Virus record (IMG/VR): IMGVR_UViG_3300036835_000388
Coordinates: 1-33,135 of that record
Reading direction: 5' to 3' (one strand)
DNA: 33,135 nucleotides
Source of the DNA: a virus
In this document: positions 3,094 to 29,145 of the stretch, piece after piece
Layout: each line of letters begins with the position of its first letter
Position numbering within the stretch: position 1 is the stretch's first letter
Notes under the pieces: model-generated
Database searches by the model: none
The model's input: the letters and a program-made list of their open reading frames with translations, nothing else
What the model was told of the DNA's origin: nothing
Made by a program: the position numbers and the translations under genes

Positions 3094-3867
3094 GTGCCAG
3101 AGAAGACCGCGGTCAAGAAGGCCGCAGCGAAGACCGTCAGCAAGAAGGCCCAGTCGGTGGTCAGCGCACCATCGATGTCCGGGGTGAAGACCACCCCGCT
3201 GAAGAAGGCCGCGACTACCGAGCACACCATGCCCGAGGGTCAGATCGTCATCTCCCGGATCGCCACCGAGACGATCCGGGTTCCGCTCATGGGCACCTCC
3301 CCGCTGATCACCCACAAGTTCAGCGAGAAGGCGAAGCGGCAGATGCTGGACGCGATGCAAGGGCGGAAGGCACCGAAGGAGCCGAAGAATCCGGAGAAGG
3401 AGTACCAGGACGCGGCGTATCGGCTCGACGACGACGGCTACGGCATCCCCGCCATCGCCTTCAAGTCGGCCACCGTCTCCGCAGCCAGGTTCTTCGGGAA
3501 GAGCGTCACCATGGTCGGGCTCCGGCAGACCATCTTCATCGCCGGCGAGTACTCCAAGCTCGAGGGCATGATGCTGGCCCGAATCATCGGCACCCCGGAG
3601 ATGCGCGAGGACGTGGTGCGCGTCGGCAACGGTGGCACCGACCTGCGGTACCGACCGTTCTGGGGTGAGTGGCGGACGTACCTGGATGTCACCTACGTCA
3701 AGAGCATGCTCACCAGGGACTCCGTGTTGTCCCTGATCGAGGCCGGCGGTCTCGGTGTGGGTGTGGGTGAGTGGCGTCCCGAGCGCAGAGGTGAGTACGG
3801 CACCTACTGCATCGACCCGTCCCGGAAGATCGAGGTGGACCCGGACACCCCGATGCCCATCGACTAG
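3094..3867 (+). CDS. Conserved phage protein with basic N-terminal tail, 257 aa
   Basis: The first 40 or so residues are Lys/Ala/Ser-rich and histone-H1-like (VKKAAAKTVSKKAQ), suggesting nucleic-acid binding. The body resembles a protein family I remember from many unrelated phages: a segment like IRVPLMGTSPLITHKF, a basic linker, IPAIAFKSATVSAARF, then MREDVVRVG, and near the end a glycine-rich GGLGVGVGEWRPERRGEYGT signature. The family's function is not known to me; the glycine-rich loop loosely recalls RAMP-type RNA-binding folds, which is speculation. The stop codon TAG at 3865-3867 overlaps the first GGCAGGC of the long repeat array. Confidence 0.7.
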   Translation: MPEKTAVKKAAAKTVSKKAQSVVSAPSMSGVKTTPLKKAATTEHTMPEGQIVISRIATETIRVPLMGTSPLITHKFSEKAKRQMLDAMQGRKAPKEPKNPEKEYQDAAYRLDDDGYGIPAIAFKSATVSAARFFGKSVTMVGLRQTIFIAGEYSKLEGMMLARIIGTPEMREDVVRVGNGGTDLRYRPFWGEWRTYLDVTYVKSMLTRDSVLSLIEAGGLGVGVGEWRPERRGEYGTYCIDPSRKIEVDPDTPMPID

Positions 3868-6700
3868 GCAGGCCCGTCGTTGTCCGGTCCGGGAGTCCCG
3901 GCACCTCATGGCGCTGCACGGCAGGCATGGTTTGGGATGTCGGACCGGTAACGGCAGGGCTAGGTCAGGCAGGCTAGGTCGCCACTCGGCTCCTCCTGGG
4001 ATGGCTGACTAGGTGCGGTTCGGCAGGCGCGACCCGTCGGGTCTGGGGCTGCTGGGCATACTGTCGCGGCATCGCACGGCAGGCGTGGAGTGACCGACGT
4101 GCTTGGGAGAGGTCAGGCGCGGCAGTCGGGTCTTGGTACTGCTGGTCTTGGGTGACGAGACAGGGACCGGCGTGGCAGGCATGGGATGGCAGCAGTGGCG
4201 CGGAAAGGTCAGGGACGGTTTGGCCCGCGTGGCAGGCACTGCTAGGCAAGGTCGCCGGGCTTGGACGGGCCAGGCAAGGCAGGCATGTCATCACGTGTCC
4301 AGACTGGGAGCTCAAGTCGAGGTCCGTCTGGTCGGGGCAGGCGAGTCGTGGCGAGGATGGGCAACCGTAGGCAGGGCGAGGCAGGCTCGGCCGCGCAGGT
4401 CCTAGTCTTGTCTTGGCAAGGCTCGGCAGGTGTGCCATGGCTCGGACGGGCTGATCATGGCTGGGCAAGACAAGGCCGGCGCGGCTAGCAAGTCCAGGCA
4501 TCATGGGACAAGTCGGAGCGTGGCCCTCGTGGCAGGTGAGGCACGGTCTCACCGGCCAAGGCGCGGGATGGACATCTTGGCTAGGCCTGGCAGGCCAGTC
4601 GTGGCTAGCTGGGCCAAGGTATTCAAGGCGAGGCCAGGCAGGCCAGGCCCGTGTTGGTTAGGACGGGGTGTCGTGGCTAGGAGTGGCAGGCGCGGCAAGG
4701 ATGATCTGACTCGGCCCGGCGAGGGGCGGTATGGCACTGCTTGGCAGGCATGGTGACCTTTGGCTCGGATGGGATGTTCGGCAGGACATGGCAGGCATTC
4801 CTGGGTTCGGTTGGCTCGGTGTCCTCTGGTCGTGGCGAGGAATGGCAGGCGTTGGCTCGGTGTGACCGGGACCGGCACGGCTAGTTGTTGGGGCACGGCA
4901 GGCCAGGCATGGATAGGCGCGGACCTACGGCTTGGCGCGACCAGGCAGGAGAGTCCCGGCATCAACTGGTTAGGCAGCACTCCGTGCGGCGTGACATGGC
5001 AGGCGAGGCACGTTCGAGAAGGCTGGTCATGGTGTGTATTGGCAGGCGCGGCTTCACGCGGATGGGTTTGGTTTGTTAGGCAAGACAGGACATGGCAGGC
5101 CAGGCATCGCAGGGCGTACCAGGTCTAGGAGTGTTTGGCACACCGGTCACGGCGCGATCCGGCCCGGCAGGCATCGCCGGATGGGGCTTGGCTTTCGGGG
5201 AAGGCGGGGCAAGGCAGGCTAGGTCTAGGCCTGGTCGGTCACTTCTTGGTGCGACGAGGCAGGCAGGATCCGGCAGGTCATGGACGACTCGGCTTGGCAG
5301 GCGTGACTAGGTGTCTCTGGTCAGGTCCCGCCAGGTTCTGACAGGGCATGGCAGGCCCGGTACGTCGATCCGGTCATGTCAAGGCTTGGCGAGGCCGGCG
5401 CGGAAAGGTTTGCGCGGTGCAGCAAGGCTGGGCATTCGTGGCAGGCTGGGCGATTCGGTCTCGGTCAGGTCCGGTGAATCGAGGCCAGGCACGGCAGGCG
5501 GGGCACGCAAGGCCGGGCGTACCAAGGCAAGACACGGCAGGCTAGTCGGGGTGGCGTCATGGCACTCTAGGCCCGACTTGGTGCCGGCATGGTGGGACGA
5601 GGCAGGCAGGCAATGGCGCGGATCACTAGGCAGTACTGGGCGCGCATGGCAGGCATGGACCCGCGTGGGTTGCAGTGGTGCGGCATCCAGGGCACGGCAG
5701 GCAAGGCTCGGCTCCGTAGGCTGGGTGAGGTACTTCAGGGCAGTCATGGTTGGCCCTTGACGGCTAGGTAGAACGCGGTGCGTCCGGGCAGGCAGGGCTA
5801 CCTCGGAGCTCTTGGTTTGGGCCGCGTGGCAGGTGTCGGCAGGGCACGACTGGGAGGTCCAGGCCCGTCTTGGAGTGCAAGGCAAGACGGCGCGGCGGGG
5901 CATGGCAGGCAGGGTTCGACCGTTCATGGTCGGGTCGACTCGTCATGGTTGGGCAGGCTCGGTCTGACCCGGCCCGGGTGACTTGGATGGGTACGCATGG
6001 CACGGCAGGCTCGGCTCTCCGGGATGTTCGTGGACCGGTCCGGTCAGGCAAGGTCCGGCAGGCAGGGCATCGCTGGTTGAGGCACGGTCGGCCCGGCAGG
6101 CCAGGCATTGTCCGGCGAGGTTCGTCGCGGTCTGGTCCGGCAGGCTCGGTTTCGTCGGGCTTGGTTGTACATCACGTGGTTCGTCGAGGCAGGCAAGGCC
6201 GTGTGAAGGCTGGGCTTGTCCTGGTGAGGCAGGCGTGGCGTTGCTCGGATGGTGGGTTTGGTGGAATCGGCATCTCAAGGCGCGGCAGGCTAGGTCGGCT
6301 TGGATCCGCTTGTCATCGCCTGGTTTGGCACGGCAGTCAGGGCGTTCCTGGATTGGCTAGGTGTGACAGTCAGGTCAGGGCAGGCCAGGCATCTCCGGTT
6401 CAGCGTGGCGGGGGAAGGCAAGGCAGGCGTGGCGGGTTTGACTAGGCCTGGTCAGCGAGGTGCAACAAGGCCGGGCACGGCGGGGCAGGCTGGTCTAGGC
6501 GGGATGTGGTCGGCGCGGTCGATCGGTGCGGCGAGACGGGCGGGGCAGGCTTGTCAGGGCCCGGTCAGTAGGCACGTGGGACTCGTGGCGAGGCAGGCAC
6601 GGACAGGGTTGGCCCGACTTGGTGGGTTGGTGTGGTACGCCTCGGCAGGCAAGCCTAGGCAAGGGCGGCAGGGCACTCGTGGCCCGACAGGCAATCAGGT
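3867..6700 (+). repeat. 2.8-kb degenerate NNNGG pentanucleotide array without genes
   Basis: No credible gene is present. On the + strand, GG dinucleotides recur at 4-6 base steps (or about 10) and hold phase for over 100 bases. Examples are GG at 4804, 4809, 4813, 4818, 4828, 4834, 4839, 4844, 4848, 4854, 4859, 4869, 4874 and 4879, and at 6587, 6592, 6596, 6601, 6606, 6611 and 6621. I count about 48 copies of GGCAGGC, all in this orientation, with spacings clustering near 43, 48, 53 and 58. CTAG occurs about 24 times here against about 15 in the other 30 kb. The strand is G-rich (27 G, 15 C in 5881-5940). The array begins at a stop codon and ends directly before a terminator, so it may be transcribed as a long RNA. 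Function is unknown. Confidence 0.85.
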
Positions 6701-6730
6701 GGGGCGGTGACTTCGGTCACCGCCCCTTTT
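6701..6730 (+). terminator. Rho-independent terminator with UUCG loop
   Basis: GGGGCGGTGAC (6701-6711) and GTCACCGCCCC (6716-6726) form a perfect 11-bp stem closed by a C(UUCG)G tetraloop and followed by TTTT. This is one of the strongest terminators in the window. It immediately ends the NNNGG array, separating it from the next operon. Confidence 0.85.
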
Positions 6731-6748: not shown

Positions 6749-7213
6749 ATGACAGATGTGTACGACGAGCTGATCGCGATCCGCGAGAAGCACGGGAAGC
6801 TCACGCCACGGATCGTGGCGGAGGAGACCAAGCCGCGGACCCACCCTCTGCACGACCGGGTCTACGACGTGGCTCCCAAGGAAGCAGCGGAGAGGTACTA
6901 CCTCTCGAACGCGGCCAAGCTGCTGCGGGTCACCTTCAAGGAGACCATGGCCAGCGGTGAGACCGCCGACCTGCGGCACTTCTGGGTGGTGCGCGGGACC
7001 AAGGAGAACCCGGAGTCCACCTACGAGCCGGTCGAGGAGATCGTGCAGGACCCGATCGCGAAGGCCATCATGCTGCGGCAGATGCTCCGGGACTGGAAGC
7101 GATTCAAGGCGCGGTACGCGCACTACTCCGAGTTCGCCGACATGATCGCGAGAGACCCCGACCACGTCGACCCCGACGAGGAGTTCGAGCCCAAGGCGAA
7201 CGGCACCGAGTGA
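6749..7213 (+). CDS. Conserved hypothetical phage protein, 154 aa
   Basis: This is the first gene after the array terminator. The 154-residue, mostly helical and charged product contains a LTPRIVAEETKPRTHPLHDR segment. It resembles small phage proteins whose N-terminus reads LTP..V...A....SPLHD and which are found in many actinophages, function unknown. The middle (AAERYYLSNAAKLLRVTF) looks like a helix followed by a strand. No metal site or membrane helix is visible. The stop overlaps the next ATG (TGATG), opening a run of coupled genes. Confidence 0.65.
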   Translation: MTDVYDELIAIREKHGKLTPRIVAEETKPRTHPLHDRVYDVAPKEAAERYYLSNAAKLLRVTFKETMASGETADLRHFWVVRGTKENPESTYEPVEEIVQDPIAKAIMLRQMLRDWKRFKARYAHYSEFADMIARDPDHVDPDEEFEPKANGTE

Positions 7214-27852: not shown

Positions 27853-28640
27853 CTAGTCCATCTTCAGCCTGGAGCGCTTCCGCGCCTTCATCGCCAGTTT
27901 GGCTGTCAGCTGTGGTGTGGTTGGGATCAGTTTGACATTGGTGCCGGGCAGTGACGACCCCTGCGTGTCGGAGTAGACCGACTTCATGTAGCAGCCCTGG
28001 CAGAACTCATCCACTGCGGTGAAGGCGAACTTGTTCTCCTCCCACTCCCAGGGGGCGGTCCCGCACAGCTGGCAGCGCAGCGAGGACTCGTAGGCGAAGG
28101 CCAGGACCTTGGCCCGATCCTCCGGGTCCCACTTGAGGAACCTGCTGTGCGGGATGCCCTTCTCGTAGCAGTAGGACATCTCGAGGTAGAAGTTCTGGTC
28201 CTTCCTCAGCCGTTCTCGCTGAAAGGGACATCCAGCCCCCGGTTGTTGAGCTCCACGGCGTTGCGGAACAGGACCATCACATCCCCGCGCGACCAGTCGT
28301 CGGAGTCCCAGATCTCCTTGGCCTCGGCCGGGGTGATCTCCGGCTCCACCGCACAGGCCGCGATCAGCGCGGGTGCGAAGGTGTCGATGTTGAAGGAGTT
28401 GCCCTCGGCCCGCTGCTCCGGCTTCGGCGGGTGCTTGCCCACCAGAGCGTCGTAGGCACGCATCCCGATCGCCTGGTACTTCAGCGTCACCTCGTTGGTG
28501 CCGCCGTTGCCGTCGGAGAGGAAGAGGGAGAACTCGGTGGTGGAGCGCGGCTTGTTCTTGAGCATGTCCAAGGTGGCGCGCTTGGACTCCTCGGACTGCT
28601 TCTGCCGTGCCTCTACGTTCTTCGCTGTCTGGTTGGCCAC
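27853..28640 (-). CDS. Tail assembly chaperone fusion (G-T type) made by -1 frameshift, 262 aa
   Basis: Reading starts at GTG 28640, changes frame by -1 at CCCTTTC (28221-28227) and continues to TAG at 27853-27855. The shifted frame reads QRERLRKDQNFYLEMSYCYEKG and onward, with two CxxC pairs (CQLCG, CQGC) that could bind zinc. RLRKDQNFYLEMSYCYE-type sequence is a hallmark of the downstream chaperone segment in actinophages. G and G-T chaperones act before the tape measure gene, wrapping the tape measure during tail assembly. The fused product is inferred from the slippery site and open frames. Confidence 0.8.
28206..28640 (-). CDS. Tail assembly chaperone, unshifted product, 144 aa
   Basis: The zero-frame product starts at GTG 28640 after a 25-base gap downstream of the tail tube gene and ends at TGA 28206-28208, 12 bases past the slippery heptamer. 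It is a helical, charged protein (EARQKQSEESKRATLDMLKNK ... EAKEIWDSDDWSRGDVM). Position between tail tube and tape measure and the frameshift architecture make the assignment strong. Confidence 0.8.
   Translation of the reverse strand: MANQTAKNVEARQKQSEESKRATLDMLKNKPRSTTEFSLFLSDGNGGTNEVTLKYQAIGMRAYDALVGKHPPKPEQRAEGNSFNIDTFAPALIAACAVEPEITPAEAKEIWDSDDWSRGDVMVLFRNAVELNNRGLDVPFSENG
28221..28227 (-). other. Programmed -1 ribosomal frameshift site CCCTTTC
   Basis: In the coding strand the zero-frame codons are GTC-CCT-TTC, giving C-CCT-TTC, a canonical X-XXY-YYZ heptamer. A -1 slip keeps pairing at both codons and joins the 144-aa frame to the following one, which is open up to 27853. The zero-frame stop TGA comes 12 bases later. 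Confidence 0.8.
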
Positions 28641-28665
28641 GTCCGGATGCTAGCCACTACATGGC

Positions 28666-29145
28666 TCAGGCAGCAACGACGGCGTCCTCCGACGGCTCCA
28701 CGTTCACCGAGCAGGACGCGGTGAAGGTGAGCACCGTGTTGGAGCTCATGTTCGCCATCGTCCGGCTGGTCACCATCACTGTCCAGACCTCGACGTTGTC
28801 GTCGGCGACCGGCAGGTTATCAGTGCCGGTGCCCCCGAACCGGCTGATGATGAACGTGCCTCGAGTACCACGCGGCAGGGTCTCCCAGGCGGTGTCGTCC
28901 TCGTCGTCGCGGTAGAAGTCCGCGTCGAACGTCGCCGCCGAGGTACCAGCCGTGCTGGTCTCGAAGAGGCTGTCGAACGCCGGCGTCGGCACCGTGTTGC
29001 CACGGGAGCTGGCGTTCAGGGAGATGCAGAAGCCGGTCAGGTCGACACACGCGGCCACCTGGGCTGCCGTGGGCGCGCTGAGGTCGGTGATCGCGGCCGT
29101 GGTGAACCCGATCCAGGTGTTCTCATTCGGGATGATGCGTGCCAT
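28666..29145 (-). CDS. Major tail tube protein, 159 aa
   Basis: This protein of 159 residues has the size and beta-rich pattern of siphovirus tail tube proteins. It begins MARIIPNENTWIGFTTA, has a long Thr/Ser/Ala-rich loop (TPAFDSLFETSTAGTSAATF), an acidic turn (YRDDEDDTAWETL), RGTFIISRFGG and a VEVWTVMVTSR ... TVLTFTASCSV end. It is directly upstream of the chaperones, as expected. The start overlaps the upstream stop by one base (TGATG). Confidence 0.85.
   Translation of the reverse strand: MARIIPNENTWIGFTTAAITDLSAPTAAQVAACVDLTGFCISLNASSRGNTVPTPAFDSLFETSTAGTSAATFDADFYRDDEDDTAWETLPRGTRGTFIISRFGGTGTDNLPVADDNVEVWTVMVTSRTMANMSSNTVLTFTASCSVNVEPSEDAVVAA

What the first reader, a model, noticed from the sequence alone, without database searches (positions are those of the whole stretch)
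3867..6700. A 2.8-kb pentanucleotide (NNNGG) lattice with no gene
The + strand carries GG at near-constant 5-base steps that hold phase over long stretches: 4804, 4809, 4813, 4818, 4828, 4834, 4839, 4844, 4848, 4854, 4859, 4869, 4874, 4879, and again 6587 to 6621 in 5-base multiples. Individual pentamers differ, so this is not an ordinary microsatellite; the GG spacing is what is conserved. A 5-base period is incompatible with a triplet code. GG every 5 bases is compatible with two-tier G-quadruplexes or R-loop-prone RNA:DNA hybrids (compare the G-rich pentameric immunoglobulin switch regions), a protein-coated filament site, a replication start, or a long RNA with many identical protein sites. 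The lattice is seen directly; all roles are inference. I know of no described phage element with this design.
Basis: partly seen in the sequence, partly recalled or inferred. Interest (0 to 1): 0.88.

Follow-up and report, generated by a model that had tools for sequence, protein, structure and literature searches.

The report
Phage VIPR guide-RNA array, unusually long
The "lattice" is a phage-encoded bank of about 50 guide-RNA units that, with the CRISPR-like protein encoded just upstream, very probably recognises and silences chosen DNA targets such as rival phages; this kind of system (VIPR) was first reported in a 2026 preprint, and this copy has an unusually long array.

Summary
GG recurs every ~4.8 bases over 3867-6702 (lag-5 z = 10.5 against dinucleotide shuffles; absent elsewhere in the window; + strand only). 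The unit is GGY+NN, punctuated by GGCA separators every ~43-58 bases, giving about 50 guide-length units. The gene immediately upstream (3229-3867) encodes a RAMP/Cas7-like protein. A profile of its family has one PDB match, "SUSP1 Vipr protein" (E = 2e-11), and finds exactly that gene in the SUSP1 genome. The lattice is therefore the vrRNA array of a VIPR system (bioRxiv 2026.04.26.720920, PMC13142463). Of 149 loci fetched only by protein similarity, 129 carry such an array on vipr's strand and none on the opposite strand. Arrays in two related phages keep GG and let mainly C/T vary at Y, while NN changes freely. In relatives, guides read by the published 1-nt-skip code match a phage capsid gene (22/22) and vipr genes; the closest relative's first guide matches this window's own vipr gene (22/24). 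The window's first guide has a 20/20 match in a ThiF (E1-like) gene, only a lead. G-quadruplex and R-loop readings are not supported. Differences from the characterised SUSP1 system: array size, GGCA separators without per-guide tails, off-length units, accessory gene.

The parts
3229..3867 (+). vipr gene: RAMP/Cas7-like RNA-binding protein, 212 aa from ATG 3229 (frame open upstream to GTG 3034); phrog_4652
   Evidence: phrog_4652 E 3.9e-35; profile A2 hits PDB 36pp_D 'SUSP1 Vipr protein' E 2e-11 as its only hit; AF2 pLDDT 89, Foldseek best hits Csm3/Cas7 RAMPs E 3e-6
3867..6702 (+). vrRNA array: GGYNN units in GGCA-delimited guides; 57 GGCAGG occurrences counting 3867, 49 intervals of at least 30 nt
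3867..3919 (+). first guide, starting on the last base of the vipr stop codon (TAGGCAGGC); NN read CC GT CC CC AG CC AC AT GC AC, with one 4-nt unit
   Evidence: 20/20 match to L351 in a ThiF gene, a lead only
5440..5492 (+). guide whose last eight NN pairs (CG TC CA CC GA GA CA AC) are identical in relative L002 although several scaffold triplets differ
6701..6730 (+). intrinsic terminator at the 3' end of the array: GGGGCGGTGAC-TTCG-GTCACCGCCCC + TTTT
   Evidence: 11-bp stem, centroid -25.4 kcal/mol; z -3.75 for the 51-nt stretch
6749..7213 (+). candidate vap (VIPR accessory) gene, phrog_15946, 154 aa, function unknown
   Evidence: homologue in 140 of 155 related loci; AF2 pLDDT 91, no significant fold match in PDB
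3511..3546 (+). stretch of this vipr gene (MVGLRQTIFIAG) matched by the first guide of the closest relative L002
   Evidence: 22 of 24 NN bases, every skipped base is a codon third position

Best explanation
The lattice is the vrRNA array of a VIPR (Viral Interference Programmable Repeat) system. It is transcribed on the + strand, probably together with vipr (the array starts on vipr's stop codon), and ends at an intrinsic terminator. The transcript carries about 50 guides of roughly 8-11 GGYNN units separated by GGCA. Vipr, a Cas7-like RAMP, would coat the RNA one subunit per unit, holding GGY and presenting NN. The NN pairs read target DNA with one base skipped between pairs, so guides taken from coding DNA read codon positions 1-2 and ignore wobble. 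Binding would repress target genes of competing phages, rival VIPR systems or host factors. Shown here: the array grammar, its link to vipr, GGY/NN evolution, and code-consistent targets for guides of relatives. Taken from the preprint: RNA expression, RNP formation, the skip rule and repression. Inferred for this phage: transcription, processing at GGCA, and the actual targets.
For: Vipr homology; positive control: the A2 profile, built without SUSP1, finds one ORF in the SUSP1 genome (28477-29079, E 1.6e-14) with GGYNN arrays beside it on the same strand. Link: 129/149 loci selected only by vipr protein have an array within 3 kb on the same strand, 0/149 on the opposite strand; 97/120 loci selected only by the DNA lattice encode Vipr, strand agrees in 96/97, and all 94 measured lie within 1 kb. 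Grammar: GGCAGGY spacing is 4 mod 5 in 926/1129 intervals of 154 other loci. Constraint: L009 vs L044 arrays, substitutions at phases G,G,Y,N,N = 2.3, 6.0, 15.1 (66 of 85 are C/T), 16.5, 17.8%. Code: L027 guide 22/22 in a phage capsid gene, skip = wobble; guides decoding to conserved Vipr motifs, 7 at score >=16 vs 0, 0, 3 in shuffles (three of the 7 are one shared guide); L002's first guide to this window's vipr, 22/24. Published mechanism: PMC13142463.
Against: No target is established for any window guide: one exact search found nothing, two gave chance-like or ambiguous hits, and local searches are at shuffle level. The window array is more degenerate than its relatives' (GGY in 51% of 5-nt units, against 78% in L009), so part of it may be decaying. 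No sigma-70-type promoter was found. SUSP1-type structured 3' tails are absent from individual guides. Expression cannot be tested here.
Confidence: 0.93

Rival explanations
1. A VIPR-derived array that no longer works, or works mainly as an assembly scaffold or sponge for Vipr rather than as a set of guides.
For: Lower GGY regularity than in relatives and frequent 4-nt units; no target proven for window guides.
Against: vipr and vap frames are intact and a strong terminator closes the array; the guide at 5440 keeps eight NN pairs identical to L002's while scaffold triplets changed; off-length units also occur in the giant arrays L002, L009 and L044, whose GG positions are constrained (L009/L044).
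Confidence: 0.08
2. A DNA element: two-tier G-quadruplexes or an R-loop/switch-like region used for replication, recombination or packaging.
For: Very G-rich + strand with regular GG.
Against: GGG tracts are depleted (z -15); vipr-selected loci carry arrays only on vipr's strand; third base constrained to C/T, which quadruplexes do not need; guides match genes with skip = wobble.
Confidence: 0.02
3. A protein-coding gene in an unusual frame or code.
For: Chance open frames up to 192 aa; some annotators called genes inside homologous arrays.
Against: 5-base period; no PHROG or Pfam match to the frames tested; frames are broken by 4-nt units.
Confidence: 0.01

Closest known systems
VIPR system of Escherichia phage SUSP1 (type II VIPR; PMC13142463, PDB 36pp)
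   Same: Homologous RAMP protein (E 2e-11 in PDB, 1.6e-14 against the SUSP1 genome), GGY/NN tandem-repeat RNA on the same strand next to it, small accessory gene; in relatives of the window, targets follow the 1-nt skip.
   Different: The window has one block of about 50 guides instead of 4 vrRNAs; guides are separated by GGCA with no structured 3' tail each; about 40% of window guide intervals have one extra off-length step; the window's accessory family (profile A3) has no hit in SUSP1.
Other VIPR array types named in the preprint (staggered/overlapping arrays, ribozyme-interspersed arrays)
   Same: Contiguous multi-guide arrays.
   Different: Their figures (S17-S20) could not be read, so identity with one of the seven types is untested; no Rfam ribozyme was found in the window or in L002, L009, L044, L211, L017.
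Class 1 CRISPR-Cas (Cas7/Csm3 RAMPs)
   Same: Foldseek best hits are all Csm3/Cas7-type RAMPs; guide array next to a RAMP gene.
   Different: No repeat-spacer CRISPR array, one RAMP only, discontinuous 2-of-3 base reading.
Immunoglobulin switch-like or G-quadruplex DNA
   Same: G-rich strand with about 5-base spacing.
   Different: GGG depleted, GGY grammar, tied to a RAMP gene.

Membership tests
VIPR system | Vipr protein: RAMP fold, homologous to SUSP1 Vipr | tested here: met
VIPR system | vrRNA of alternating GGY/NN repeats next to vipr | tested here: met
VIPR system | 9-16 repeats per vrRNA | tested here: inconclusive
   GGCA-delimited guides hold mostly 8-11 units; true RNA ends unknown
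VIPR system | vap accessory gene in the locus | tested here: inconclusive
   phrog_15946-like gene follows the array and is present in 140 of 155 related loci; whether it is one of vap1-6 could not be checked
VIPR system | targets found by the 1-nt skip rule | tested here: inconclusive
   met for guides of relatives; for the window only a lead
VIPR system | vrRNA expressed and co-purifying with Vipr; target repression | not testable with these tools
   needs sRNA-seq, pull-down and reporter assay
type II (SUSP1-like) VIPR | invariable structured 3' tail on each vrRNA | tested here: not met
   guides follow one another across GGCA; one terminator hairpin at the array end only; SUSP1 arrays end in non-repeat sequence
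CRISPR-Cas | identical repeats with spacers plus several cas genes | tested here: not met
   no such repeat array found; neighbouring proteins tested have no Cas match
G-quadruplex / switch-like DNA | G-tracts free to lengthen, no third-base rule | tested here: not met
   GGG depleted; Y rule

The most novel reading that the evidence does not exclude
This lineage (window, L002, L009, L044) is a distinct 'giant array' VIPR variant. It carries 50-90 separators in one block with GGCA punctuation instead of per-guide tails, and many guides contain one unit of 4 (or 6) bases that still delivers one NN pair. Its guides are aimed both at rival VIPR systems (L002's first guide against a vipr gene like the window's) and at host or mobile-element defence genes (the window's first guide against a ThiF-JAB-E2 ubiquitin-like operon), making VIPR a counter-defence tool as well as an anti-phage one.
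Probability: 0.3. Interest if true: 0.82.

Novelty: new member of a known kind. Interest (0 to 1): 0.62.

Why it matters
VIPR is a very recently reported RNA-guided DNA-recognition system, proposed to be ancestral to CRISPR and to read DNA discontinuously. This locus and its relatives give independent sequence evidence for the code, show a GGCA-punctuated array form with 129 of 149 vipr loci carrying an array, and provide orthologous array pairs in which guide turnover can be measured. They also supply natural guides with testable targets, including vipr against vipr.

Tried and rejected
G-quadruplex or switch-region element: rejected (GGG depleted, Y rule, strand link). Coding region: rejected. 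Rfam RNA and ribozymes: none. tRNA array: none. DNA homologues of the lattice in the phage collection: none detectable, because NN drifts. Exact-match target searches for a window guide, two cluster F phage guides and one Streptomyces guide in 247 genomes of its genus: no hits. A 16-base seed of the conserved guide at 5440: 11 hits in unrelated genes, judged chance. Slip-tolerant searches of the giant arrays in ~4 Mb: shuffle level apart from L002's first guide. First local target searches in 2-3 Mb of loci: no enrichment at any skip; adding whole relatives' contigs gave the L027 and L015 matches. Across 692 guides the overall excess at skip 1 is modest (22 hits from 11 guides vs 3-11 hits from 3-10 guides in shuffles), so weight rests on the few long matches. 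Vap function from fold: no significant match. The window's 20/20 ThiF match is kept only as a lead: an 18-base pattern hit three unrelated gene families, so agreement at two more bases is not decisive, and the placement of the 4-nt unit was chosen after seeing the hit; the 20-base pattern was absent from 296 genomes of the Streptomyces phylum.

Full report
OBSERVATION. The lattice is real. In 3868-6702 there are 519 GG dinucleotides; pairs 5 apart number 187 against 95 expected from dinucleotide-preserving shuffles (z 10.5), with further peaks at 10, 14, 19, 24, 29, 34, 38, 43, 48 and 53, so the step averages 4.8. The other 2.8-kb blocks of the window show nothing comparable, nor does CC. GGG is depleted (z -15). 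The word GGCAGG occurs 56 times in 3868-6702, plus once at 3867. Segmentation shows mostly 5-base units beginning GGC or GGT (then GTC, GAC), with 4-base units of which half are GGCA. GGCA therefore acts as punctuation, giving 49 intervals of at least 30 bases; a few double-length intervals lack a separator.

WHAT IT IS. The gene that ends where the array starts (3229-3867; the first GGCAGGC overlaps the last base of its stop codon) belongs to phrog_4652, of unknown function. An alignment of 69 homologues matches one protein in the PDB by sequence: 36pp_D, "SUSP1 Vipr protein" (E 2e-11). The AlphaFold2 model (pLDDT 89) has Csm3/Cas7 RAMP proteins as best structural matches (E 3e-6). PMC13142463 (bioRxiv 2026.04.26.720920) describes VIPR: a RAMP protein (Vipr) with vrRNAs made of alternating GGY/NN motifs, whose NN pairs recognise double-stranded DNA with one base skipped between pairs, used against competing phages. 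As a positive control, the profile built here without SUSP1 was run on the complete SUSP1 genome: it found one ORF (28477-29079, E 1.6e-14), flanked on the same strand by GGYNN arrays, as the preprint states.

ASSOCIATION. Loci were fetched in two independent ways. Of 149 selected by Vipr protein similarity (80 viral, 69 from cellular genomes), 129 have a GGYNN array within 3 kb on vipr's strand and 0 on the opposite strand. Of 120 selected only by a DNA pattern of the lattice, 97 encode Vipr, with the same strand in 96 of 97, and all 94 measured lie within 1 kb. Several without Vipr are short fragments. Short forms (190-330 bases) sit next to the same gene in Gordonia phages ODay, Pipp and UmaThurman and, on its 5' side, in Mycobacterium phages Saal and Philus. 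The gene after the window's array (6749-7213, phrog_15946) recurs in 140 of 155 loci and is the likely accessory gene (vap); its model is confident but has no significant structural match.

GRAMMAR AND CONSTRAINT. In 154 other loci, successive GGCAGG[C/T] separators lie 4 mod 5 bases apart in 926 of 1129 intervals, exactly as n five-base units plus one GGCA predicts. In the window and its closest relatives (L002, L009, L044) a large share is 3 mod 5 (19 of 41, 13 of 47, 28 of 63, 25 of 57), i.e. one further 4-base unit inside the guide. L009 and L044 share most of their guides; in aligned five-base units the substitution rates at the five positions are 2.3, 6.0, 15.1, 16.5 and 17.8%, and 66 of 85 third-position changes are C/T. 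That is the GGY-fixed/NN-variable pattern of a guide scaffold. Between the window and L002, guide content has turned over almost completely (5 of 43 units at >=0.7 similarity) although both keep the same array in the same place. One shared guide (5440) keeps its last eight NN pairs unchanged while scaffold triplets differ.

TARGETS. Decoding guides with the 1-nt skip against ~4 Mb of fetched DNA gave a 22/22 match of an L027 guide inside the HK97-type capsid gene (PF05065, E 2e-41) of another VIPR phage, with every skipped base at a codon third position, and a 19/20 match of an L015 guide inside vipr of L009 and L044. Scored against the Vipr family, guides reach high scores more often than shuffled ones (score >=16: 7 vs 0, 0, 3; reversed-family control 1); the 7 comprise five distinct guides, one of them shared by three loci. 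Among these, the first guide of L002, the window's closest relative, reads M V G L R Q T I F I A G, the window's own Vipr peptide: 22 of 24 bases at window 3511-3546, against 20 of 24 in L002's own vipr. It is the longest near-match in the unbiased search of the giant arrays; shuffles reached at most 2 mismatches in 20. This guide contains a 6-base unit that still contributes one NN pair. The window's own first guide reads CC GT CC CC AG CC AC AT GC AC and matches 20/20 in a ThiF (E1-like) gene of a 143-kb contig (L351; 67% G+C in the 13.5 kb held), in an E2-JAB-ThiF cluster near an AbiEii gene. This stays a lead: the 18-base search pattern also hit two unrelated Gly-rich families, the motif VAIVGxGGTG is common, and the unit parse was settled after the hit was seen. 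Other window guides have no convincing target.

TRANSCRIPTION. The array ends at GGGGCGGTGACTTCGGTCACCGCCCCTTTT (6701-6730), an intrinsic terminator, and vap follows at 6749. The simplest reading is a vipr-array transcript that stops before vap; transcription itself is inferred.

NOVELTY. The element belongs to a kind reported in 2026. It differs from the characterised SUSP1 system in array size, GGCA separators without per-guide tails, off-length units and accessory gene; whether one of the preprint's seven types already covers this could not be checked, because the supplement was not readable. It is filed as a new member of a known kind, with a stated chance that the giant off-length arrays are a distinct variant.

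Noticed in passing
L004 6632-6901 (Gordonia phage Pipp gene 43); L007 3171-3494 (UmaThurman gene 40); L006 4059 (Philus gene 52 start): Published annotations place hypothetical genes inside, or start a gene inside, the vrRNA array; these look like annotation artefacts.
   Followed up: partly
L351 4286-6105 and 9014-9970: E2, JAB and ThiF genes in a row (ubiquitin-like cluster) near an AbiEii-type toxin gene, in a contig classed as viral; contains the 20/20 match to the window's first guide.
   Followed up: partly
L009 6590-10800 and L044 6640-10320: Even longer arrays (92 and 86 GGCAGG) from the same metagenome sample, sharing most guides: a natural pair for measuring guide gain, loss and drift.
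   Followed up: partly
L006 4247-4265, L003 6797-6821: Perfect short hairpins at the 3' end of some short arrays (Philus, ODay), possibly RNA-end caps comparable to the window's terminator.
   Followed up: no
L064 7047, L194 4382 (- strand), L226 9047: The same guide, reading E D M V R V G M, occurs in three loci and matches the most conserved Vipr motif (16/16 in L048's vipr).
   Followed up: partly
L208-L276: Relatives of this vipr occur in cellular genomes of Actinomycetota, Alphaproteobacteria, Clostridia, Bacteroidota and others, probably mostly prophages.
   Followed up: no
L022, L032, L051, L057 and 16 other vipr loci: 20 of 149 vipr loci show no regular GGYNN array near vipr by the strict detector (some are cut contigs); a few may use another consensus.
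   Followed up: no
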